From: a virus
Virus record (IMG/VR): IMGVR_UViG_3300033146_001898
Location: 1-22,913 of that record
Strand: one strand, 5' to 3'
Length of the DNA: 22,913 nt
The position numbers and the translations under genes were made by a program. The notes under the pieces are model-generated. The model ran no database searches. It was not told where the DNA came from and was given only the letters and a program-made list of their open reading frames with translations. Positions 1-22,184 of this stretch are shown here, one piece after another; position 1 is the stretch's first letter; every line of letters starts with the position of its first letter.

Positions 1-69
1 ATGGAGGAAGAATTAGCGAAAGTTTGATATGATTTAAACGAAGAAGATATTAAAGAAGGTGTTGAATAG
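1..69 (+). CDS. 3' end of an unidentified ORF (left-edge partial)
   Basis: An open frame runs from the first base to TAG at 67-69 and gives 22 residues with one TGA-glycine. It is rich in Glu and Asp and ends in KEGVE. The ATG at position 1 may be an internal methionine, because the true start probably lies outside the window. Too little is visible to suggest a function. A terminator-like hairpin follows 11 bases after the stop, which fits this being the last gene of an upstream transcript. Confidence 0.45.
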
Positions 70-80
70 CATCTAGTTAT

Positions 81-111
81 GGGAGATAGGGGTAGTAACT
101 TTTATCTCTCC
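81..111 (+). terminator. Terminator-like hairpin, copy 1 of a repeated element
   Basis: GGGAGATA (81-88) pairs over 8 bp (one G-U) with TATCTCTC (103-110). There is no long T-run after it, only CTTACATGG, so termination would be weak unless assisted. The hairpin shares the ATAGGGG and TTTATCTCTCCTT blocks with the strong terminator at 11106-11145, which points to a duplicated element. Confidence 0.5.
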
Positions 112-163
112 TTACATGGATGTTTTATCCCCAAAGGGTATTATATCCTGTTAACGTAATTAT

Positions 164-183
164 ACGGCAGGTAAAACTGTCGT
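164..183 (+). other. Short hairpin upstream of the first tRNA-like element
   Basis: ACGGCAG (164-170) pairs with CTGTCGT (177-183), with one G-U pair, around a GTAAAA loop. It ends five bases before the tRNA-like acceptor strand, so it could be a processing signal or part of the folded leader. No T-run follows, so it is not a typical terminator. Confidence 0.3.
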
Positions 184-187
184 GTAT

Positions 188-255
188 GTACAAATAGCTC
201 AGTTGGTAGAGCTACCGTGTAGGCGGTGTGCATGGGTTCGAGTCCCATTTTGTTA
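188..255 (+). tRNA. tRNA-like gene with a shortened anticodon arm; isotype uncertain
   Basis: The D arm is canonical: GCTC (197-200), loop AGTTGGTA, GAGC (209-212). The T arm is also canonical: ATGGG (232-236), loop TTCGAGT, CCCAT (244-248). The acceptor strands GTACAAA (188-194) and TTTGTTA (249-255) pair at five of seven positions. The anticodon arm is odd: TACCG (213-217) pairs with CGGTG (224-228) around a six-base loop TGTAGG instead of seven, and only three bases remain for the variable region. If T218 is U33 the anticodon would be GUA (Tyr), but this is not secure. It may be degenerate, a decoy, or atypically folded. It is not the UCA-anticodon glycine tRNA that TGA decoding needs. Confidence 0.6.
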
Positions 256-292
256 CAAAGATATGTCGGTAGCATCGACGGGTGCTACTTAT

Positions 293-357
293 GGAATATA
301 GATACTGGGAGATCGTCCCAGTGGGTCTTATACTGAGTTCGATTCTCAGGTATTCCT
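293..357 (+). tRNA. Minimal tRNA-like element (acceptor and T arm intact, body reduced)
   Basis: GGAATAT (293-299) pairs over 7 bp with GTATTCC (350-356). It directly abuts a perfect T arm: CTGAG (333-337), TTCGATT, CTCAG (345-349). Only 33 bases lie between, several fewer than a normal D arm plus anticodon arm plus variable loop need. Two folds compete. A D-like arm GAT...ATC (301-314) would leave no proper anticodon loop. ACTGGG/CCCAGT (304-309, 317-322) with loop AGATCGT would leave no D arm and no U33. It could be a degenerate tRNA or a tRNA mimic; no anticodon can be assigned. Confidence 0.4.
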
Positions 358-519
358 ATCTAAATATGTTCACTCTACTATAACAACAAATGAAGACCAC
401 ATAAAATGAGTGATCCTATATTGTTCTGAACATTTGAAACACCTATGGAAGCACGGTAGGAGATAGACCTACTAAAATCTAAAGGAGTATATAAAGAATA
501 ATTTAACCACTAAAGCAAT

Positions 520-867: not shown

Positions 868-3663
868 ATGCCTGAGATAAAAAATCTAGAGCCATCAATT
901 AAACAATATCAAGCTTTAATATATCTATGAGCTATACCTATATCAGAAAGAAAAAACGGTAAACGAGAGTTAGTATTAGACGAAAATTGATTAGAGACAT
1001 ACGACTCGAGCACTACTGAATTGGGGTACGGTTGAGCTGCTTGATGATGAAAAATTTTGGGAGATACCAGTTCTCTACTGACAACTTTATGACGAAAGAA
1101 GGGGATAGATGTCAAAGTTTGAGACACATGTGTAGGCTCTGATTGATTACCACAAAAGATAATAGCAATGACAGAGTATATGATACTCCCTAAATGGAGA
1201 GTGTCTTTTTCTGATTGAACACATACTGATGTAGCAGGGGGACATTTATGGACTGCACGAAAATCTAGAGAGTCATTAAGAAAATGATGAAAAAGATTAT
1301 TCTGACAAGACTCAGCACAAGTAGTTGAGACAAAGACTCTAAAAAAACGGATAAATAATAGTGATTGAAATAGATGAATGCCACTAATACCAGTTAATGA
1401 AGAGGTATATTTTGATCAGTCAAATACACCGAATTTAAAAATAGACCCATATTTGTTATGAGTTTTATTATGAGATTGAAGTATGACTAAAGACACAACA
1501 ATCTCATGGTATTGTAGTTGAGAAGATATGGAGTCATACAAAGATATATTTTGATACAGAGATATTAACTATCATAGTAAGCCAATACAGAATGGACAAA
1601 CAAAACATAGCATAACTATTGTAGGAACTAGATTAATGGAATTAAGAGAATGATTAAGAAAATATTGACTAATTGGTACGTATTCCGATACAAAATTTAT
1701 ACCAGAAGAATACAAGTTGTCTTCTATAGAAGAAAGGTACGAAATAGTGCGTTGATTACTTGATACAGATTGAAATAAGGGTAAGTGAAAATATACAACC
1801 TATTACGACACCACTTCAAAGCAATTGGCTGATGATATGGCGTTTATATTGCGTTCATTATGAGCTGTTGTAACAATTAGTAGTAGAATGTGAAAATACA
1901 GAAAGGATTGAGTAGTAATAGAATGCAAGAGATGTTATAGTCTATATATAAAACATAGAGATCCAGATAAATTATTTAAGTTAGATAGAAAGAAATTGGG
2001 TTTAAAACCAAAAGAAATAAACAAGAGAGTTATTAGTGTAGAGCAATTAGACGAGACCATCAAATGAAGATGTATAACAGTATCTAATCCAAACTGACTA
2101 TATATAACAGATGATTTTATAGTAACTCACAATAGTTGGTTATGATGTAATCGAATATATATAATGTGTATGAGATATCCTTGAACAAGACGATTTATAG
2201 CAAGGGAAGAGTTGAAGAAACTAAAGGATTCCACATTACTCACCATGCGAGAGATATTGTGAGATAAGTGACTAAAAAGAGACCATTGATATCATTATAA
2301 TGACATAAGTTGAAGGATTACTTTAGATAATTGAAGTATGATTTTCCTGTTATCGTTAAAAAATGAGCCTTCCGATCCTAAATTTACTAGATTCTGATCT
2401 ATGGAACTTACTTGATGATTCATTGATGAAGCAAACGAATGTCCAATAAGGTGATATTGAGTATTGATATCAAGAATAAGATACAAATTAGAGAATTTTT
2501 GTCCTCTATGTGCATGAAAGATGACAATACACGATAGATTAGGGGTTGTAAAAGTAAAAAATCCTAATCAAACATGTAAAGATGATGAATATATGGAGAA
2601 AAACCTATATTTATGTCCATCTTGTAAGAGACGTAATCATTGACTATCTCCAAAGGTACTAAGTGGCTTTAATCCAGATAAATGACGGGTTCTTACTAAA
2701 TTTTACAGACCTTGGAGTGAGTGAACACAACTAGACCACATAAAGTTTATAAAAGCTCTTGTAACAGATAATAAGAATATTCCTAGAGCATATATAGCTA
2801 ATCTAATGCGTATGGAGAATAAAATAGATAGAGAAAGACTATTACATGGTAATTTCGACTATGATGATTCTCCATGAAGACTTTTTGATTATGATGAATT
2901 ATTATGACTATTTGAAAAACCTCTTGAATCTCAATTACTTAAACAGAAAGAAGATACAGATCCTGACTACAAAGTAGATGTATCAGAATTTGGCAAATGT
3001 CACAGAACTTGATATGAATATAGGATAACCTGTGACCCTGCTAGACACGGTAGGGATTTAGCGATTATTATGGTATGGAATAAGCGAAGTATTGAAGAGA
3101 TATATGTGTATCATTATTCAGATTTGACTGAACTTGAGCAAAGAATAACTATTTTATGGGATAAGTATAATATCTGACCGAGGGAGACGATGGTTGATGA
3201 TGATTGATTATGAGGAGGAATTGTCGATCATATGAAATGTAGATGATTTATAAACAGATCAGCACCCATACAACCTAAAGCAGCAAAGAGAGACCCATTA
3301 AATAGAGTAAATTATTATACTATAAAGGATCAGTGTTACTTTGAACTCGCAAACAATATAGGAAAGGTTTCTATAACACCTGACAATATTTATATATATG
3401 GTAAGAGTCTAAGCAACGCTAACACAACTAAGTTTCAAGATTCTGATAAAAAATTAACATCAAAAGATGTAATAAAAAGAATAATTGAAGAGTTAGACGC
3501 TATGGTAGAGATAGATATTGATATAGATTGACCAAAAAAAGTAATAAGAAAGAAAGAATTGAAAGCAAAATTATGACGTTCCCCAGATTTTGGAGATTGT
3601 ATGATGATGCGTTCATATTGGCATATAAAAAGGAGTAAAAGAGTATTTGTGTTCTCATGATAG
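868..3663 (+). CDS. terL: Terminase large subunit (TerL) precursor containing an intein
   Basis: The 931-codon ORF encodes the DNA-packaging ATPase/nuclease; removing a 361-residue intein gives a 570-residue mature protein, a normal TerL size. The Walker A motif GGAAGGK (residues 55-61) is completed by Ser423 after the intein. Walker B is at GGFIDEANE (516-524). The RNase H-like nuclease acidic residues are visible as D723 (ITCDPARHGRD), D777-D779 (MVDDDG) and D910 (DFGDC). Between ATPase and nuclease lies a CxxC...CxxC pair (545/548 and 583/586), a probable zinc ribbon. Many TGA codons fall on essential glycines, including G59 and G60 of the P-loop. TerL docks on the portal encoded next. A strong terminator follows the TAG stop. 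The family assignment is secure. Confidence 0.93.
1051..2133 (+). other. Class 3 intein with LAGLIDADG homing endonuclease inside TerL
   Basis: This in-frame 361-residue insertion covers TerL residues 62-422 and splits the P-loop between Lys61 and Ser423. The N-terminal block ILGDTSSL...VKVGDTCVGSDG resembles intein block A but lacks the usual Cys or Ser first residue. Block B reads FSDGTHTDVAGGHLW, with Trp128 directly after HL. Block F has Cys402 (GRCITV) where class 1 inteins carry Asp. Block G ends in VTHN followed by Ser423, with Thr420 before His421-Asn422. W128, C402 and T420 make the WCT triplet that defines class 3 inteins, in which the internal Cys replaces residue 1. LAGLIDADG motifs are at 196-204 (LLGVLLGDG) and 293-302 (IVRGLLDTDG). 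Intein and endonuclease are secure; the class is well supported by motif positions. Confidence 0.9.
2500..2625 (+). other. Zinc-ribbon-like insert in TerL
   Basis: TerL residues 545-586 carry CPLC and CPSC separated by 34 residues, with another Cys at 570. The segment lies after Walker B and before the first nuclease Asp. Four paired cysteines with this spacing are typical of a structural zinc site. Zinc binding is inferred from spacing only. Confidence 0.55.
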
Positions 3664-3739: not shown

Positions 3740-5071
3740 ATGTTTGATTTCATAAAAAATAAGATAACTAATGGTTTCTGAAAGAAATTAAGTAAAAATA
3801 CTGTTACTTCTATAATGAATAGAGCATGATATTCGTATATATCAGACAATATTTCTGATTGTTGAGCTATTACATTTAATTATCAAACAATGTTTGATAT
3901 ACAAAGAATGAATACAGAGGCACAGCAAAGTAAAAATCTTATAGTAAAAATGGTGTGAAAAAAATGAATGAATTTTAAAAACGGTAAAGACATAGTTGAA
4001 GATAAGATATGGGAAGAAAAAATAAAAAATTTATTTACAGATCCTTTGACAGGATCATTTCGTAGTATGAGAGATAAATATTATACAAACAATTTCTGTT
4101 CATGAATGGTGTTTTGATATAAGGCACTTAATTGATTATGAGAACCTGTTATCCAAATACTAGATTCAAGATGAATAGATCAATATACGGATAATTATGG
4201 GAATATTAATAGAATATTATATAATAATAAAGAATTAGATATTCAAAGGGTATTTAGACAGATAAATCTATATGACCCTAACCTACCTAAGCAATGAATG
4301 TCTGTTTATGAGAGTGTTGTATATGATGCGTTTTCTGATAAAGAAACTAGTAAAAGAAATTACTATTTTTTTAAAAACAACGCTATGCCTTGAGTTATAC
4401 TTACATTAGATGATGAGATAGAGAATCCTGAGGAGATAGAAGCTGCTATTAAGCAATTTGAAGAAAACTATAAATGATCTGAGAAGTCTAATAAAGTATT
4501 AGCTAGTGGCTGAATAAAAGAAGTAAGAACTATAGATGTATCAAATAAGGATTTAGAATTATTAGAACTTAAAAAGTTTTCTATTAAGAAAATGGGAGTT
4601 ATATTCTGATTTGACCCTAGATTCTTATGATATAAGGATGATGCCAATTGATCTCATGCTGAGTATCAAGTAATGGCTAATCAATCAGATAAATCTATGA
4701 CTGATTTTGCTGATACATTAGAAGATTTTATGTTTAGAATAGTTAAATCTATATACAAAGATTTTAGATATACTTGAATAGAATTAATTAATGATCAATT
4801 TATGGATGAGGTAGTAAAACAAGAATTAATAGAGAAGAAGGTAGAGAAATGATTGTGTACATTAAAACAATGAATACAAGAATTATGATATAGCACTAAG
4901 AATATACCTGCATATATGGATACATATATACTAAATACTCAATGGAATTCTATTGATAATATATTTAAGAAGGCTGAATTAGATCAAAAACTTACTGATA
5001 AAACAATTAAGCAAACATCAGAAGATAGTAGTAAAGAAAACGATTTAGAGGATGAAGATAAAAAAACATAA
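3740..5071 (+). CDS. Portal protein (HK97-type)
   Basis: 443 codons from ATG at 3740 to TAA at 5069-5071. It forms the dodecameric ring at the capsid vertex through which TerL pumps DNA and to which the neck attaches. The middle carries the familiar portal block: PGVILTLDDEIENPEEIEAA, then KVLASGGIKEVRTID, and then FSIKKMGVIFGFDPRFLGY, matching the segment in which portals place the conserved fold around the VPP-like turn. The C-terminus is acidic and disordered (SSKENDLEDEDKK). Length is within the family range. Glycines are mostly TGA. It sits between terminase and protease, the standard order. Confidence 0.88.
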
Positions 5072-5135: not shown

Positions 5136-5942
5136 ATGGATTTCACTTCTATGTCTAAAAAAGAATTTAAGGAATATATCAATCAAAATTGATTTTTCGT
5201 AAATTTCAACGCAAAAAAGATAGACAAAAACGATCTAGATCTAACTGAAACTAATTGAGCTAAAAGAATGGCTAAGTTGCCTAAATGAGATAGTATATTA
5301 GTATTTGAAGGTATAGCATCACAAAATTATGCTAAATGAGATAAAAATAGGAATGGATATAAGATAGATCCAAATGGGTGGGATACTAAGAACTATAAAA
5401 ATAATCCGATTATGTTGTTACAACATAATCATGAATATTGAGGAATAGGACACTCTGTTAAACTATCTATAGATAGTGAGTGAAACTTAGTAAATATGTT
5501 CTATGTAGATCTAAATACTCTGGATGAAAAAACAAGATATCAAGTAGAAAATTGATTTATAACTGCTGTTAGTACATCTCATATCACATTAGAGGACATG
5601 ATAGAGGACAATAAAACAGGTAAAAGGATGACTCGAGAAGAAGCTCATGAAGAGTGAGTAGATTTGTGGGGTGTTATGTTCTGATACAATGAGGAATATA
5701 CATTAGTGGTAACTAAAGCAGAAATGATAGAGAATAGTCTTGTTACAATAGGAAGTAATGCAGAGGCTATAGTAACTCACAATAGTGTATGAAATTATTT
5801 TACTAATAAATATATGTCTAATATGACTATTACAGATGAACAAAAAAAAGATCTTCTTGGAAGCAAGTTATCAGATAACTTAAAAGCCAAAATTAATTGA
5901 CTGAAAGTAGAAAACGAATTAGATAAAAAAGATGAATGATAA
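5136..5942 (+). CDS. Prohead maturation protease (HK97/S78-like)
   Basis: 268 codons from ATG at 5136 to TAA at 5940-5942. It would cleave scaffold and capsid N-termini during procapsid maturation. The catalytic His region is NNPIMLLQHNHEYGGIG, with H97 and H99 as candidates. The catalytic Ser is probably S146 in FITAVSTSHI, and the downstream EMIENSLVTIGSNAEA block (196-211) matches the strand after the active site in this family (typically ELSLVPVPANP-like). The last 55 residues are a charged linker and helix. The gene overlaps the scaffold-like ORF by 11 bases, which ties their expression. Family assignment is good; the exact His is not certain. Confidence 0.82.
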
Positions 5943-6437: not shown

Positions 6438-7586
6438 ATGGCAAGTATTTTAGAAAGAATGAACCAACTTAAAGAAGTTGGAGGAGTTGATAACAAAGTT
6501 ATCGAATCACAAGCAAACGAATATAAAGAATTACTTAAAACAAAACAAAATGCAAATGAAGTAGAACATACAGGTAATGTTTGATATGGAAAAGAACTTA
6601 TCCCAGATGATGTTCTTACTAATCAAATATTAACTATTATACCTACTTATGCTACATTCCTTAACGCTCTTAATGGGTTTCATGGAAATAGTATGGGTAA
6701 ATCAGTTACTATGCCTATTTTAGGTGAAGTTTGATATGCTGTAGGGGTAGATGAAAGAACATCTGCTGCATTGGCACACAAACAAGCAAATAGAAGACTA
6801 CCTACTGACAAAGTTACTATTACACAACAAACATTATATGCACAAGTTGATGTATCAAGACAAGAGTTGTTGTATTCAGTAGTTGAATTAGAAAGTATTA
6901 TTAAAAAAAGATTATCAGAATCTTTTGCTAGAACAATCGAATCTGTAATTCTTAACGCTGATTCTTTAGTAGCTGCTACTGGTAATATTAACTCTGATGA
7001 TCAAGATCCTACATTGGCTTTCGTTGATGGAGCACAAGATCATAGATTAATCTACGATAATGGTATAAGAAAAACATTCCTTTCAGGAACAGTTGATGTT
7101 GACTTCAAAGATATAGGAGCTATGTCTTGGGCTAACATTATGGAGACTAGAGGTCTATTAGGTGACTGGTCTTTTGATTTAAGTGATCTTCTTCTTTTGA
7201 TGAACGGAGCTACTTATAATAAAGCTATTACAATACCTGAATTTGCTGACGCATCTAAAAACGGACAAAAATCAACAATTGCTACATGAGCTATAGATAG
7301 AATATCTGGTAATGATGTATACATAGTAAGATCTTATCCTAAAACAGAAGCTGATGGTAAAATATCTACTGTTACTCCTACTAATAACGAAAAGTGAGGT
7401 TTCCTATATATGAAGAAACAAGCTGTACAGTATTGATACGGTGCACCACTAGATATGGAAGTATATAAGATTCTAGGACAAGGTATTTCAATAGTTGCTG
7501 CTATGGAGTTCGGTTTCGCAATCGTAAACAAAAAAGCTGGTAATGTTGATCCATGGATTGTCGGATGAATAAATGTGACACTATAG
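6438..7586 (+). CDS. Major capsid protein (HK97 fold)
   Basis: 382 codons from ATG at 6438 to TAG at 7584-7586. It forms the icosahedral shell. An N-terminal helical segment (residues 1-48) precedes GYGKELIPDDVLTNQILTII, the start of the mature-like domain in HK97 capsids. The protein continues through PTDKVTITQQTLYAQVDVSRQEL, an SESFARTIESVILNADS helix, and a C-terminal DMEVYKILGQGISIVAAMEFGFAIVN segment typical of the A domain. Its glycine codons are unusual for the window: 27 GGN against 6 TGA. It is followed by a terminator-like hairpin. Assignment rests on motifs, size and position. Confidence 0.88.
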
Positions 7587-10141: not shown

Positions 10142-11005
10142 ATGGCAAATTTTTCAAAAACAAACGTATCGTATAAAGCTGCTAAGGTGTATATCACACT
10201 ATTTGATCCTGAAAGCACAAAGGCATTAAATATACCAGATAGAACCTTAACTACATTTAACGATAATGTAAGTGCAGTAATCGCATACCTTGAGTCTAAT
10301 TATGTGTTCGATAGAATGGCATGATTTAAAAATGTAAAAATATCAGATGCTTTTGAAAATGAAATAACAGATGAAGTAGATGATTGTGATATTCAAGAAC
10401 GACAAAAGAAGGCTGAAATATCTACAACCTTTTCAGGTGATTGGTTAACAACTCTTGATTTATGAGTTCTTGAAATATTATTAGGGTATGGTTTTTCTTC
10501 TCAAACAGGAGCATCTATAACTGATGATACATTTACTTTGACTGCTAATAGTCGATCACAAGATAAGTTCTACAGACTACCATACCAACATCACGATGCA
10601 AATGGTAATATAATCAAACCAACTGTATTTGCTGCTACAGCAGGAGGAACTGGTATTACTGATGGAACTGACTATAGAATAGAACAAAATTCTTACTGAG
10701 AATTTGGTTTGGTGGTATATGGAACAGTTGCTACAACAAACGAAGTTGTATTAACATACGATCATACAACAATAACAGCTGACTTCTGAGGTTTTGAATT
10801 TGGTGATGTGATACAACCATATATGATAGTTAAGATAGAGACATGTCCTGATGAAAATGGTAAAGTACATTACTACTATATCACAAAGGCTTCACTGTCT
10901 GGTTCATTAGATACAAACTTCATCTCAAAAGGAGAAGTACCATTGTCTTCTATAACATTAGTATGAGGAAAAGGATGAAATAAATACTTCCAAAAATCAT
11001 TATAA
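10142..11005 (+). CDS. Major tail tube protein
   Basis: 287 codons from ATG at 10142 to TAA at 11003-11005. It polymerises into the tail tube. It is beta-rich with few charged helices; KISDAFENEITDEVDDCDIQERQKKAEISTTFSGDWLTTLDLGVLEILLG matches the loop-plus-helix of siphovirus tube proteins, and later strands (FGLVVYGTVATTNEVVLTYDHTTITA) are Thr/Val-rich. The gene lies between neck and tape measure and is followed by the strongest terminator in the window. Its glycine codons are 18 GGN and 6 TGA, like the capsid gene and unlike its neighbours, consistent with high expression. The tube role is well supported by context. Confidence 0.75.
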
Positions 11006-11709: not shown

Positions 11710-14700
11710 ATGTCAGAAAAATTAGAGGTAACCGTAGATATAGATTTGAGTAATTTAAATGAAAAATTATCTCAAGCGAAAAAACTAATTAGCGATGCTT
11801 GAAAAGATATGGAGAAGCAGGCTTCTACTTCGGCAAGTAAAGCTGCTACTGCTAGTATTGATGCTGATAAGAAAAAACTTGATAGCACTAAAAAAACAAC
11901 TAAGGCACAAGCTGTTAGTATGAAATCATTGTCGGATCTTTCTATAAATGAAGTAGAAAGATTAAAAACTAAAGTAATTAGTAATATGGAAAAGATAGAT
12001 GCTGCATTTAAGTTAGATCCAGCAAAAAATACACGTGCTATGAAAGAACGGGAAGCTGAGATAAGAAGGACATGAATTACAGCTAAAGATACTGGTAAGA
12101 AATTGGATAAAATGGCAGAGAATAGATATATTGAATTGAAAATAGAAAAAAACAAGATGGTTAATGACTTAAATAAAGTCAAATCTCTTATAGCAAAGGC
12201 TACACTATCTCAGCATGTAGATATAGATATAGATAAAGATAAAGTAAAAAAGCAATTAGTAGAGGTTAGAGCAGAATTAAAAAAAGCTACAAAGAGTTGA
12301 AACGATAATATTATACATTTAAGTATATCAAAAGAAGAGGAGCTTATAAGAAAGTTGAAATATCTTGAAGCAAGAAAGAAAGCTGTAACAAAAACTGCTA
12401 CATTAAAGATAAGAATGGAAACAGACGACGTAAAAGCTGCTTTCTCGGAGACGAATAGAGAAATAAAAAATCTAGAAACTCAGTGAAAATCATCAATGAG
12501 TCGTATTTGAAAACACGTTAATAATATTACTAATTCAATTAAAACAGGATTAGCTACAATGATAAGTTGATTTGTAGTATTACAATGAATTAGAAACTTA
12601 ATACAATGACTTAATGATGCTAAAAATGTTGCTTTACAATGGGAAAGCTCTTTTACTGGTGTAAAAAAGACAACCAAGGCTACAGCTGAAGAATTTAAAA
12701 AATTAAATAAAGAATTGGTACAGTTGACTAAAGAGATACCATCTACTTATGAAGAGATAACAAAAATAGCAGAACTATGATGACAAATGTGAGTTCCTAT
12801 AGATCAATTAAAAGCTTTTACAGAGGCTGTGGCGATGATAGGTACAACAACAAATCTTTCTATAGAACAAGCTGCTACACAGTTTGCAAGATTGCATAAT
12901 ATAATGTGACTACCATTAGATAGAATAGATGAGACTGCTAGTGCAGTAGTATCTCTAGGTAATAATTTTGCAGCACAAGAAGATGAAATATTAAATTTTA
13001 CTACAAGGATAGCAGGTAGTTGAAAAGTAGCTAAAATGACAGTATGACAGTTGACATGAATAGCAACTGCACTTACTTCTGTTGGTATCAAGGCAGAAAT
13101 GTGATGATCTGCAGTGAGTAAAGCTATGCTTGAAATGAATTCTGCAGTTTCTAATTGATGAAAAGAATTGGAATGATTTGCAAAAACATCTTGATTATCA
13201 TCAAAAGAATTTAAAGATATGTGGAAAGATGATGCTGCTTGAGCGTTTACTTTGTTCGTAGAGTGATTGTGAAAAGCTTGAGATAAAGCAGACGCTGTAA
13301 TAGCATGATTATTGTGAGATAATGTTAGAACTAAACAATCTTTTCTTAATCTTGCATGAGCTGGAGACTTGTTAAGAAGAGCAATAGAAAATGGTACAGA
13401 GGCACGTAAGTTAAATTTAGCACTATCTAAAGAAGCACAACTTAGATATGGTACAGAAGCTAGTCAACTAAAAATATTGACAAACAAATATGAAGAACAA
13501 CAAAATATAATGTGATGACAACTTGTGTGAAGTTACAAAAATCTTACTAAGTTAAAACTTAGTTTTCTTACTTGAATAGTAAAATTATCAGAAGCTTTAT
13601 GAGGTATGAGTGTTATTCTTACTTGACTGGTATGAATATTATGAGTATTAGCTGTTGCATTTGGTATAATATCTACTCCAATATTATTGGTAATCTGAGC
13701 TGTAGCTGCTGTAGCAGGTTGAATAGCTTTGTTATGAAGAGAGACTAGCTGATATATATCTGAAGTAGAAAAACTTGAGGGGCGTATGATAGATTTAACT
13801 AAATCTATGGAGGCTAATAAAAACGAACAAAGTAAGGTAGAACAACAATATATCTCTGGTAAAATTTCGTTAGAAGAATATAGAAGTGAGATGGAGAAAT
13901 TGTATTCTGAAGAACTTAAAATGAATAAGATAAGAAGCGAAGTTGCTGATGATCTATGAAAACAGAATTGGATGCAGAATAAAATGACAGAGACAAAAAG
14001 AAAGCATAAAGATCTATTAGCTGAAGAGTCAGTTGCAACCAAAGAAGCTACCAAATCACAAGAAAAGTATAATGATAAAAAAGCAGAGTTGGATAGACTA
14101 TTTTTTAATGGTGTAATAACACAAAAAGAATATAATGAGCAACTTGATTTGTCTAACAAAGAGAATATAAAATATCAAAGTTCATTACTTTCAATAAAGG
14201 CTGCTGTGTCACAGAGTAGTAAAGCTATGGAGAATAAAAGACTTATTCTTCGTGCATTAGTTGAAACGACAAATAATGATATAGAAGTTGAAGAAAGATA
14301 TAACGAACTTAAAATAGACAATACTGATGATGTTACACAGATATTAAATAAGACAAATGCTTTAGCAGAAGAAATAGCTAAAGGTAGAGAAGCTATCGGT
14401 GTTGATCTAGCTAGGAAGAAAGTAGAACTTGCCTTAGCAAAAGAAACGGATTCGTGACGAAGATGAGCTGCTAAGTCCGCATTGAAATTTGTGTCTATAT
14501 TCTCACCATGAGTATGAATATGAATGAAGTGACTAGAAGATTGAAAAAATAAGATAACAAATAATCTAGTACAAGAGGTAGACAAACTACAAAAAGCTTT
14601 TGACGATCTAGGTGAACTAAAGGTAGAGCCAATAAAAGTTGTTGATCCAGCATCAGCATGAAACGCAGAGAAAATAGCTAGTGCATTATGATCTATGAGT

Positions 14701-14742
14701 GAATCAGCAGAGCAGAGTTATCTAATGTTTGAAAGTGAATAG
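11710..14742 (+). CDS. Tape measure protein, N-terminal and central part (frame broken at 14740)
   Basis: 1010 codons from ATG at 11710 to TAG at 14740-14742. The protein sets tail length and travels through the tail with DNA. The N-terminus has four copies of a strand-plus-helix unit: VDIDLSNLNEKLSQAKKLI (about residues 8-27), YIELKIEKNKMVNDLNKVKSLI (139-160), HVDIDIDKDKVKKQLVEVRAEL (169-190) and a degenerate one at 229-255. A TP901-type tape measure domain follows (NNITNSIKTGL...AAFTEAVAMIGTTT-like region, about 275-430). A long hydrophobic stretch spans roughly 632-677, then coiled coil to the stop. The natural C-terminus is found later in the same frame (14911-16344), so this ORF is probably the first part of a single ~1544-residue protein. 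Confidence 0.85.
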
Positions 14743-18864: not shown

Positions 18865-19950
18865 ATGAAACAAATTATTTGATCAAGACAGATACAAGAT
18901 TTGTCTATCCCTAATGGGAAAATTACGGATACTACATTAGAATTTGGGAAACTAAATACTAATATGTATACAACAGATTTAGCTGTTTCTGCTACTGTTA
19001 CTGAACTAGCTAGAGCGGATGCTATAAAATCTTATGTAGATGGTTTAGTTGATGGTTCATTAAAAACACCAGAAGCTTACAATCCTACAACTACAGGTAA
19101 CTATCCACTAACTTATAGTGGAGCTACTATTCAAGCTGGTGATTCATTCAGAATTACTGCTGCACAAGCAAGTATCGGATGAGGTTCAAGAGATGTTAAC
19201 GTAGAAGATTTATTGATCGCTTTAGTAGATTGAGCTGGAGCAACGACTGACGCTGATTGGATGGTTGCAGAAAGTAATAGAGATCAAGCTACTGAAACAG
19301 CACTAGGTCTTGCTGAATTAGCTACACAAGCTGAAACAGATGCAGGTACTGATGATCTAAGAATAGTAACACCATTAAAATTGACTACTTTCATAGCTAA
19401 TCTAAATATAGATAAAACCGCTGGAGCAGGAATGACAGAAACAACTGGTACATTCAACGTAATAGCTGCTGATCTATCATTAAATATAGCTGCTGATAAT
19501 ATGCAAGTAAATATTGGTAACACAAACGGAACATCATTAGAAGTCTCTGCTACAGGACTAGAACTAGCTTCTAATATTACTGGAGAGAGAACATTTACAG
19601 TAGGAACTTGAAATAATTTTGATATTATTGCTGACGCAAACTTAGCTACATTGAGTTCACAACCTACAGGTACAGTTCCTTTAGCTATTGCTACAGTTGA
19701 TTATGTAGACAACAATGCTGGCGGAACATGGGGTAAAGAAATACATACATTGACAGCTTGAGAAGTTACTGCTGGAGCATTTACAATGTCTCAAACAGCT
19801 ATTGCTAATAGTATGGATTTTATATTCAATGGTTCTGTTCAAACAGAATGAGCATGAAACGAATATACAGTATCAGGTACTACAGTAACACTAGTTACAC
19901 CAGCTGATCGAACAGCAGGAGATGTAATTGTACTTAAATATCAATACTAA
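18865..19950 (+). CDS. Tail fibre protein (361 aa)
   Basis: 361 codons from ATG at 18865 to TAA at 19948-19950. The N-terminus (IIGSRQIQDLSIPNGKITDTTLEFGKLN) resembles attachment segments of tail fibres. Residues about 139-172 (ATETALGLAELATQAETDAGTDDLRIVTPLKL) carry the widespread fibre motif in which 'AT....Gi.elAtq.Et.aGtDd.riVtP.kL' recurs along the shaft. The rest is Thr/Ala/Gly-rich beta structure. Its base use stands out: 28 glycines are GGN and only 7 are TGA, the reverse of adjacent tip genes, which suggests high copy number or a different origin. A hairpin follows its stop. Confidence 0.78.
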
Positions 19951-20024: not shown

Positions 20025-22184
20025 ATGCAACAAATAGAACAGTCACAGATATGACTTAACCAAATGACAGGTAGTTCACTAAACGCCTGATTATGATTCT
20101 ATGATGAAACAAAAGCATATTCTAGTGGAGATAGAGTGAATCGAGGAGTAAAAACATATGAAGCAAATGCTGGGACTAGATGAATTCTAACTAGCTCACC
20201 AGATTTGAGTGTAGATTGGGATGAGGTAGCTGTCTCTAGCTGATGAAGTTATTTATCTAAATCTGTAGTACTATGAGAAGATGTAACAGCATGAGATTGA
20301 CAATGAGCTGTATTCTTTGGATCATGAAATATAGACACAGAAAACACGATACAAGATACATGAGGCTCAGATTTGAATATCTGAGATAATGTTGCAAGAG
20401 AAAAGCAATGATTTATATTCACTCCAAAAGTAGATTGAAATATAGATATATTAAGAAGTTTTAAGTTTAATATAAAAAAGACTTGAGCACCTACAGATAA
20501 TCTAGAATTTAATTTATATGCTAGTGATAAAACAACACCTATTGCAGGATATACACAACAGATTATAGCTGGTTGAGATCTAACTGCATCATATGTACAA
20601 ACACTAATAGATTGATTAGACACTACAATAACAGATTGAACATCATATTTCTTAGAATTTAGTAGAAGTTGAGCATTGGATGCCTCTAACTATTATCAGA
20701 TAGAATATATAACCAGTGATGAGGTAGCTAATTATTGATATTCTACTTATAATTGAAGTGCTTGGACAGATAGTGTAAATGATTTAGATTTTGATGTACA
20801 GTATTGAAAGGATTGTACTATTAACAAAGTACGAAAAACAGATAGTAGATATTTAGAAACAAATAAGTGCGATTGAGTGGTTATAGAATGAGGCTCTGCG
20901 GACGAGTCTAAAAAAATGATTTCACAATGAGATTTAACACAAGGAGATGTGAGTATTTGATCTGATTATTTTATTAGAAATAATAATTTAAATGGATATA
21001 GTCTCGATAGTATGCGGAATAAAGAGACGTTAGATCTATCAGCTACATGACAAGATCCTAGATGACTAGAATTTAATGATGATGGTAGTAAGATGTATGT
21101 TTGATTTACGTCTGACGATGTTATATATGAATATGCTTTGTCGACTGATTATGATATTACAACGGCGATTGCAACAGGTAATACACTAAATACAGCGTGA
21201 CGAGATACAGCACTTTGATGAATTAGATTTAACCCAGACGGGACTAAGTTATATGTAATTGGTGTAACAAACGCTAGGGTGCATGAGCGGGATTTATCAA
21301 CTGCTTATGATATTACAACAGCCACTCACATAGATTACTTACAGATATCAGTAGATACATATATTAGGAATATAGCATTTAATGCAGACTGAACAAAATT
21401 TATTATAATAGGTACTGGTAATCTGCGTATATATGAATACAATTTATCTGTAGCTTATGATATAAGCACAGGTACATACTCAACAAATAATTTGTATGTT
21501 TGAACATTTGTTGCATCAATAGAGTCAATTTGTTTTTCTAATAATTGAGAAAAATTACTTATAACTGGATGAAATGAGTTATTGCAATTTGATTTATGAA
21601 CAGCTTATGACGTAACAAGTGCAAGAATAAACACAACACTAGACGTTAGCTCGGACACAACACAACCGTCTTGATTAGCATTTAACCAAGATTGAAGCAA
21701 GATTTTTTATGGTTGAAATGATAATGACACAATATTTGAGTATTTAATATCAGACAATAAAATAACAGGGTCGTTTTGATTATATGAAAATGATAAATTA
21801 GGAAGCTATAGATTATGAAATTGAATAAACTCAACCAATATAGTATTGATGACAAATGAAGAAAAGTATTGATATTGATTTAAAGATACAATAGACGCAG
21901 CCAATAATACTACTTATCATGCCAAAGAAGATTGATTTGTAACTGCATATGTGACAACTTCTTCATGAACTAATGACCCTGTATCATTACATTGATATGC
22001 TTGAGATGATGATAGTTCTGTATTAGTAGCTCCTTGACACGCTCATTGATATTCTAATGCAAGCCCTAGAGTAACGATTACTTTCCCAGTAAAAGCATGA
22101 CAATATTATAGAGTAAAATATACGTTAAGTTGAAACTTGGTATTGGGGACATTCGAGGCAAAATTTTATCCATTATCTGCATAA
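20025..22184 (+). CDS. Large tail-tip protein with a beta-propeller domain, probable receptor binding
   Basis: 719 codons from ATG at 20025 to TAA at 22182-22184. Residues 1-80 contain a carbohydrate-binding-like segment (YDETKAYSSGDRVNRGVKTYEANAGTRG). About 100-250 is a beta-sandwich region. From about 335 to 570 there are five repeats of roughly 50 residues, each with F(N)xDGxK followed by hydrophobic strands and then LSTAYDITTA-like sequence (turn glycines at 354, 406, 456, 508, 557). This is a WD40/YVTN-type propeller pattern. The C-terminal 140 residues form another beta domain ending KFYPLSA. Glycines are 54 TGA and 23 GGN. Position downstream of fibres and the propeller suggest host-surface binding; the ligand is unknown. 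Confidence 0.72.
21015..21755 (+). repeat. Five-fold propeller repeat within the tail-tip gene
   Basis: Five diverged units are spaced about 50 codons apart (mean roughly 150 bases). Their turn codons are GGT at 21084, GGG at 21240, and TGA at 21390, 21546 and 21693. Amino acid similarity is clear while DNA identity is low, so the duplication is old. A full propeller would normally need six or seven blades; a sixth may be hidden in diverged flanking sequence. Confidence 0.65.

What the first reader, a model, noticed from the sequence alone, without database searches (positions are those of the whole stretch)
20025..22184. TGA = glycine can be proved inside this window
In the five blades of the tail-tip propeller the same turn position (F..DG.K) is encoded GGT (21084), GGG (21240), TGA (21390), TGA (21546) and TGA (21693). 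TGA also supplies both glycines before the P-loop lysine in TerL and the glycines of both LAGLIDADG motifs. TGG still gives Trp (for example DW in the capsid protein). All stops are TAA or TAG. That is code 25, known from Gracilibacteria and Absconditabacteria, and points to such a host.
Basis: partly seen in the sequence, partly recalled or inferred. Interest (0 to 1): 0.85.

Follow-up and report, generated by a model that had tools for sequence, protein, structure and literature searches.

The report
Phage reading UGA as glycine, CGA/CGG tryptophan

Summary
All five propeller-blade codons are in frame as stated, 344 in-frame TGAs lie in the 21 genes from 868 to 22911, and all 20 complete genes end in TAA or TAG. 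TGA = Gly is confirmed without circularity. With TGA masked, 237 aligned sites favour Gly over the next residue by 138 natural-log units. Standard-code homologues alone give +54 over 89 sites. Pfam scores rise under Gly and fall under Trp.

The interpretation 'code 25' is incomplete. The window's 26 CGA/CGG codons behave as Trp, not Arg: 18 aligned sites favour Trp over Arg by 42.8, and no random draw in 20,000 came near. In recoded relatives CGA swaps with TGG 107 times, with AGA 4 times and with CGT not at all. The propeller itself has a CGG in a Tyr/Phe column. UGA=Gly with CGA/CGG=Trp is the code predicted for Absconditabacteria, which narrows the host by inference. No host genome or spacer could be linked.

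One phage family spans the standard code, UGA=Gly with CGA=Arg (probable, few sites), and UGA=Gly with CGA/CGG=Trp. TGA is strongly avoided in presumed abundant virion proteins. UGA-recoded Absconditabacteria phages are already known. Their sense-codon reassignment was not found in the papers I could search.

The parts
20025..22184 (+). 719-aa protein with five beta-propeller-like repeats; 54 TGA, 23 GGN, 5 CGA/CGG, 2 TGG
   Evidence: weak propeller Pfam matches only under TGA=G
21084..21086 (+). blade 1 turn Gly, codon GGT
21240..21242 (+). blade 2 turn Gly, codon GGG
21390..21392 (+). blade 3 turn Gly, codon TGA
21546..21548 (+). blade 4 turn Gly, codon TGA
21693..21695 (+). blade 5 turn Gly, codon TGA
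21288..21290 (+). CGG in the aromatic column of the blade repeat (Y / CGG / Y / F / Y): internal evidence that CGG is Trp, not Arg
   Evidence: sequence; alignment by eye (blade 4 needs a 2-residue gap)
868..3663 (+). large terminase subunit, interrupted by an intein; 56 TGA, 9 CGA/CGG
   Evidence: PHROG terminase matches; tblastn to phage terminases; alignment
1054..2133 (+). intein between P-loop Lys62 and Ser423 of TerL, LAGLIDADG endonuclease; class 3 signature Trp128, Cys402, Thr420 and no nucleophile at position 1 (Ile63)
   Evidence: class 3 criteria from own knowledge
2152..2154 (+). CGA at a TerL position that is Trp in three standard-code phages
2191..2193 (+). CGA at a TerL position that is Trp in four standard-code phages
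2686..2688 (+). CGG at a TerL position that is Trp in three standard-code phages
964..1350 (+). four CGA/CGG codons (964, 1093, 1258, 1348), three of them inside the intein; TGG at all four in relative L006
10400..10555 (+). two CGA codons (10400, 10553) in the probable major tail protein, TGG in L008 at both and in L001/L002 or L007 at one
3740..5071 (+). portal protein
   Evidence: PF04860 43.1 bits with TGA=X, 57.4 with Gly, 35.8 with Trp
5136..5942 (+). probable head maturation protease
   Evidence: weak PHROG match
6438..7586 (+). major capsid protein; TGA only 6 of 33 Gly codons
   Evidence: PF05065
10142..11005 (+). probable major tail protein (by position and size); TGA 6 of 24 Gly codons
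   Evidence: no family match; annotation inferred
11710..14742 (+). tail length tape measure protein
   Evidence: PHROG 13339 E 5e-66 with TGA masked; PF10145 52.6 bits (X), 72.4 (Gly), 48.8 (Trp)
18865..19950 (+). repetitive virion-like protein; TGA 7 of 35 Gly codons
   Evidence: function inferred
188..257 (+). tRNA-like gene, 42.7 bits, 6-nt anticodon loop UGUAGG, anticodon not assignable; not tRNA-Gly(UCA)

Best explanation
The window is the late (head, packaging and tail) module of a tailed phage with an HK97-type capsid that uses its host's altered code: UGA = Gly alongside GGN, CGA and CGG = Trp alongside UGG, CGU/AGA/AGG = Arg, and UAA/UAG as stops. SHOWN by alignment: the three reassignments, here and in most of its recoded relatives. 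INFERRED: the host is in Absconditabacteria (Absconditabacterales). It would supply tRNA-Gly(UCA) and Trp-charged tRNAs reading CGA/CGG, and would lack a release factor that stops at UGA; the phage's codon choice has drifted to fit that tRNA pool. INFERRED: UGA is a slower or weaker Gly codon, so genes for the most abundant virion proteins are selected to use GGA/GGT instead.
For: TGA=Gly: Gly over Ser by 138 nats and over Trp by 334 at 237 sites with TGA, CGA and CGG masked everywhere; standard-code homologues alone, 89 sites, +53.7; TGA exchanges with GGA 507, GGT 465 and GGG 210 times within recoded relatives; Pfam bits rise under Gly and fall under Trp. CGA/CGG=Trp: 18 sites, Trp over Tyr 22.8 and over Arg 42.8; without TerL, 9 sites, Trp over Arg 19.0; 0 of 20,000 draws of Arg-codon sites or of any sites reach the observed value (maxima -12.5 and +5.1); standard-code homologues alone, CGA n=6 +14.1 and CGG n=3 +5.0 over Arg. 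Exchange partners in the recoded group: CGA with TGG 107, CGG 14, AGA 4, CGT 0; in the standard group CGA with CGC 244, CGG 167, AGA 149, CGT 124. Per-locus control: nearly every standard-code relative gives Trp-minus-Arg below zero, and recoded relatives with enough sites give it above zero except L031/L032 and L058. Usage in the window, CGA 28, CGG 8.5 and UGG 44 per 10,000, resembles the host values in PMC8629427 (CGA under 37; CGG under 7 in all but one species). PMC13092985 also states that Absconditabacterales decode CGG and CGA as Trp.
Against: No host genome, prophage or spacer was linked. The one genome scan with the capsid alignment returned only standard-code bacteria, mostly Chloroflexota and Actinomycetota, and its pattern back-translates Gly presumably as GGN, so TGA-bearing prophages may be missed. 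The CGG assignment alone rests on 4 aligned sites. Three recoded relatives (L031/L032, L058) look like CGA=Arg. No peptide data. The likelihoods use a simple BLOSUM62 model, not Codetta.
Confidence: 0.88

Rival explanations
1. Plain NCBI code 25: UGA=Gly only, CGA/CGG remain Arg, host could be any Gracilibacteria or Absconditabacteria.
For: This is how published patesciphages are annotated (PMC10746230, PMC13059738). L031/L032 and L058 in the same capsid family do look like this (CGA n=4 and n=8, Arg favoured by 6.7 and 9.1).
Against: In the window Trp beats Arg by 42.8 at 18 CGA/CGG sites, and standard-code terminases have Trp at 2152, 2191 and 2686.
Confidence: 0.04
2. Code 4: UGA=Trp (Mycoplasma-like or self-recoding phage).
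For: UGA=Trp is the commonest UGA reassignment in bacteria; it would also open the frames.
Against: Gly over Trp by 334 nats; Pfam scores drop under Trp; Trp would be 5.3% of residues (counts).
Confidence: 0.005
3. The phage recodes itself inside a standard-code host with its own suppressor tRNA and release factor (late-gene code switching).
For: This window is the late module, and TGA-recoded phages of standard-code hosts exist (discussed in PMC10746230). Patesciphage RSA-ATP1 encodes tRNA-Gly(UCA) (PMC13059738). A tRNA-like gene lies at 188-257.
Against: No tRNA-Gly(UCA) and no RF-1 family gene on this or 14 related records, some 30-46 kb. Moving CGA/CGG to Trp by suppression would compete with the tRNA-Arg of a standard host. 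All these records may be fragments.
Confidence: 0.07
4. The low TGA share in capsid, tail and 18865 genes reflects recent acquisition of those genes from a standard-code phage rather than selection on expression.
For: In a recent arrival, GGN would persist.
Against: The bias recurs in capsid genes of relatives (0-6% TGA in L001, L002, L006-L008, L010, L013, L030, L042; 34-35% in L031, L033) while their terminases and tape measures are TGA-richer. The same genes show other marks of translational selection: AGA-only Arg and more TTC, TAC and ATC. The capsid gene has long been in the recoded clade.
Confidence: 0.2

Closest known systems
Absconditabacteria code of Shulgina & Eddy 2021 (PMC8629427): UGA=Gly, CGA=CGG=Trp
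   Same: All three reassigned codons, low GC, AGA as main Arg codon, similar CGA/CGG/UGG usage
   Different: Described there for bacterial genomes; here in phage genes, with a model-free codon-exchange test
Code 25 phages and prophages of Absconditabacteria and Gracilibacteria (Liu et al. 2023, PMC10746230)
   Same: In-frame TGA as Gly, coding density collapses under code 11
   Different: That paper uses table 25 and does not mention CGA or CGG; here those are Trp
Patesciphage RSA-ATP1 of Strigamonas methylophilicida (Bouderka et al. 2026, PMC13059738)
   Same: Tailed phage with UGA=Gly, presumed Absconditicoccaceae host
   Different: Complete genome with tRNA-Gly(UCA); annotated with code 25; sequence relation to this window not tested
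Phages predicted to read AGG as Met (noted in PMC8629427)
   Same: Phage that follows a host sense-codon reassignment
   Different: Different codon, amino acid and host; so phage sense-codon reassignment as such is not without precedent

Membership tests
NCBI translation table 25 | UGA read as Gly | tested here: met
NCBI translation table 25 | UAA and UAG are stops | tested here: met
   all 20 complete genes end so; capsid C-terminus matches relatives
NCBI translation table 25 | All other codons standard, including CGA and CGG = Arg | tested here: not met
   Trp over Arg by 42.8 at 18 sites; exchange counts
Absconditabacteria code (UGA=Gly, CGA/CGG=Trp) | UGA = Gly | tested here: met
Absconditabacteria code (UGA=Gly, CGA/CGG=Trp) | CGA = Trp | tested here: met
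   14 sites, Trp over Arg 31.5
Absconditabacteria code (UGA=Gly, CGA/CGG=Trp) | CGG = Trp | tested here: met
   4 sites, Trp over Arg 11.3, plus aromatic blade column at 21288; few sites
Absconditabacteria code (UGA=Gly, CGA/CGG=Trp) | Host tRNA-Gly(UCA), Trp-type tRNA(UCG/CCG), no release factor 2 | not testable with these tools
   window is a 22.9 kb virus record without a host bin
Phage of Absconditabacteria | CRISPR spacer match or prophage in a host genome | tested here: inconclusive
   capsid alignment found no such genome; spacers could not be searched
Self-recoding phages of standard-code hosts | Phage-encoded suppressor tRNA, RF1 or synthetase | tested here: inconclusive
   no tRNA-Gly(UCA) and no RF-1 gene in 15 records; synthetases not searched; records may be fragments
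Tailed phage (Caudoviricetes) late module | TerL, portal, HK97 capsid and tape measure in order | tested here: met
Class 3 intein | Trp (block B), Cys (block F), Thr (block G), no Cys/Ser at position 1 | tested here: met
   Trp128, Cys402, Thr420, Ile63; the three residues conserved in L006; splicing untested, criteria from own knowledge

The most novel reading that the evidence does not exclude
A single phage family crossed into UGA=Gly hosts (one recoded clade is not rejected, p-AU 0.59) and then followed its hosts' meaning of CGA/CGG. Its members now use three codes: standard, UGA=Gly with CGA=Arg, and UGA=Gly with CGA/CGG=Trp. Within the recoded members UGA stays a penalised codon, avoided in the most highly expressed genes. 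Phage genomes could then place and order sense-codon reassignment in uncultured hosts.
Probability: 0.4. Interest if true: 0.75.

Novelty: new variant of a known kind. Interest (0 to 1): 0.55.

Why it matters
Phages of Absconditabacteria and Gracilibacteria are annotated with table 25. For this window and most of its recoded relatives that mistranslates every CGA and CGG (26 here) as Arg, including conserved terminase tryptophans. Phage genes independently support a bacterial sense-codon reassignment that, as far as I could find, rests on computation alone. CGA/CGG meaning also separates likely host groups that share UGA=Gly. The avoidance of UGA in capsid genes makes it testable whether a reassigned codon is decoded less well.

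Tried and rejected
Code 4 (UGA=Trp): rejected. UAG or UAA reassignment: coding density does not rise enough. First-pass inference on all six-frame ORFs (second half of 45) was polluted by antisense frames in GC-rich relatives; redone on validated coding ORFs. First one-clade test (p 0.02) wrongly left three UGA=Gly rows outside; redone (p 0.59). In some searches the code labels are hand-set from the inference; L079, first labelled standard, also reads TGA as Gly. Genome scan for a prophage: only standard-code hits. Host-lineage genomes could not be reached. No close relative of the window in GenBank phages, no tblastn match for portal or capsid there. Propeller protein: no relatives found; AlphaFold model too weak to use (mean pLDDT 46.7), so no fold search. 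The exact tRNA D-arm pattern has no match in viral contigs.

Full report
What is there. The window is a whole IMG/VR record of 22,913 bases, classed as linear, with no host genome. Read with TGA as sense it is one + strand run of 21 genes from 868 to 22911: terminase large subunit with an intein, portal, protease, capsid, tape measure, further tail genes and the propeller protein at 20025-22184. Read with the standard code the fraction of the window in long open frames falls from 0.93 to 0.38.

The observation. The five codons at 21084, 21240, 21390, 21546 and 21693 are GGT, GGG, TGA, TGA, TGA in frame and fall in one column of the repeat, with Phe at -4 and Lys at +2 in all five blades. The P-loop and LAGLIDADG claims hold too: three TGA precede the P-loop lysine, and all glycines of the two endonuclease motifs are TGA. 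All 20 complete genes end TAA or TAG.

UGA = Gly. To avoid circularity, TGA, CGA and CGG were masked as X in the window and in every relative. Each aligned site was then scored once, as the mean log-odds over its homologues. At 237 TGA sites Gly leads the next residue (Ser) by 138 nats and Trp by 334. With only standard-code homologues (GenBank phages, GTDB bacterial genomes and three GC-rich viral contigs), 89 sites give +53.7. Pfam profiles agree: portal 43.1 bits masked, 57.4 as Gly, 35.8 as Trp; tape measure 52.6, 72.4, 48.8. Within recoded relatives TGA exchanges mostly with GGA, GGT and GGG.

CGA and CGG = Trp. The same comparison showed that the window's CGA/CGG codons sit where relatives have TGG, and its TGG where relatives have CGA. 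At 18 sites Trp leads Tyr by 22.8 and Arg by 42.8; without the terminase, 9 sites still give Trp over Arg by 19.0. None of 20,000 random draws of 18 sites with true Arg codons, or with any other codons, came near. Standard-code terminases have Trp in four of four at CGA 2191, and in three of three at CGA 2152 and CGG 2686; the terminases fetched were those of Flavobacterium phage 11b, Bacteroides phage Versailles, Cellulophaga phage phi10:1 and Polaribacter phage P12002L. CGT, AGA and AGG align with Arg, TGG with Trp. The model-free count is plainest: in the recoded group CGA is exchanged with TGG 107 times, with AGA 4 times and with CGT never, whereas in standard-code relatives its partners are CGC, CGG, AGA and CGT. 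The propeller carries its own witness: CGG at 21288 stands in a column that is Tyr, Tyr, Phe, Tyr in the other blades (sequence; aligned by eye).

What this means for the code and the host. NCBI table 25 changes UGA only, so the phage is not plain code 25. UGA=Gly with CGA=CGG=Trp is the code that Shulgina and Eddy (PMC8629427) predicted for Absconditabacteria; some Gracilibacteria were predicted to share CGG=Trp only. A 2026 study (PMC13092985) repeats that Absconditabacterales read both as Trp. Codon usage in the window (CGA 28, CGG 8.5, UGG 44 per 10,000) resembles the host values in the first paper. The host call is therefore Absconditabacteria, by inference: no prophage, spacer or bin was linked, and the single genome scan found only standard-code bacteria.

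Relatives. In the capsid tree the UGA=Gly phages fall almost wholly in one part, and one common clade of 25 rows is not rejected (p-AU 0.59). L058 and L079 lie elsewhere. Most recoded relatives with enough sites favour CGA/CGG=Trp. L031/L032 (4 CGA sites) and L058 (8 sites) favour Arg. Standard-code members lie close by. The family thus appears to span three codes; the CGA=Arg group rests on few sites.

UGA is avoided where expression should be highest. TGA makes up 70-92% of Gly codons in terminase, portal, tape measure and several tail genes, but 18%, 25% and 20% in the capsid gene, the probable major tail gene and 18865-19950 (chi-square 104, 20 df, p 2e-13). In nine relatives the capsid gene has 0-6% TGA, and in L031 and L033 34-35%. 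The same three window genes show further marks of translational selection (AGA-only Arg, more TTC, TAC, ATC). That UGA is decoded less efficiently is my inference.

Machinery. No tRNA-Gly(UCA) and no RF-1 family gene was found on the window or 14 related records, so the simplest view is that the host supplies the decoding. RSA-ATP1, a complete Absconditicoccaceae phage, does carry tRNA-Gly(UCA) (PMC13059738), and these records may be fragments. L001 and L002 carry a normal tRNA-Trp(CCA) upstream of the terminase.

Novelty. UGA=Gly phages are known (PMC10746230, PMC13059738), so the finding as given is a known kind. Neither paper mentions CGA or CGG in its main text, and my searches of the held library found no report of phages with CGA/CGG=Trp. 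A phage precedent for another sense-codon change (AGG to Met) exists in PMC8629427. Subscription papers and preprints were not searchable.

Noticed in passing
window 1054-2133: Intein inserted in the TerL P-loop between Lys62 and Ser423, with class 3 signature residues (Trp128, Cys402, Thr420, Ile at position 1) and a LAGLIDADG endonuclease; L006 has it too, L001, L008 and L030 lack it.
   Followed up: partly
window 60-360: Dense structured RNA region: stable hairpins (91-101 nt stretches, z -2.8 and -5.8), a tRNA-like gene with a 6-nt anticodon loop at 188-257, and a second tRNA-like fold at about 293-357 with a good acceptor and T arm but a single fused arm between them.
   Followed up: partly
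L001 3266-3338, L002 516-588: tRNA-Trp(CCA) with A1:U72 and G73, upstream of the terminase in relatives that read UGA as Gly; it might guard UGG from misreading by tRNA-Gly(UCA).
   Followed up: no
window 6438-7586, 10142-11005, 18865-19950: TGA strongly under-used as Gly codon in presumed abundant virion proteins; the capsid gene shows the same in relatives.
   Followed up: partly
L031/L032 and L058: Relatives that read UGA as Gly but seem to keep CGA as Arg (4 and 8 aligned sites), L031/L032 nested among CGA=Trp phages.
   Followed up: partly
L079: Distant relative outside the main recoded clade that also reads TGA as Gly (29 sites) and perhaps CGA as Trp or Tyr (3 sites); a possible separate crossing.
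   Followed up: no
window 1-69: Open frame from the first base, MEEELAKV(TGA)YDLNEEDIKEGVE then TAG, cut off at the record's start or a short gene.
   Followed up: no
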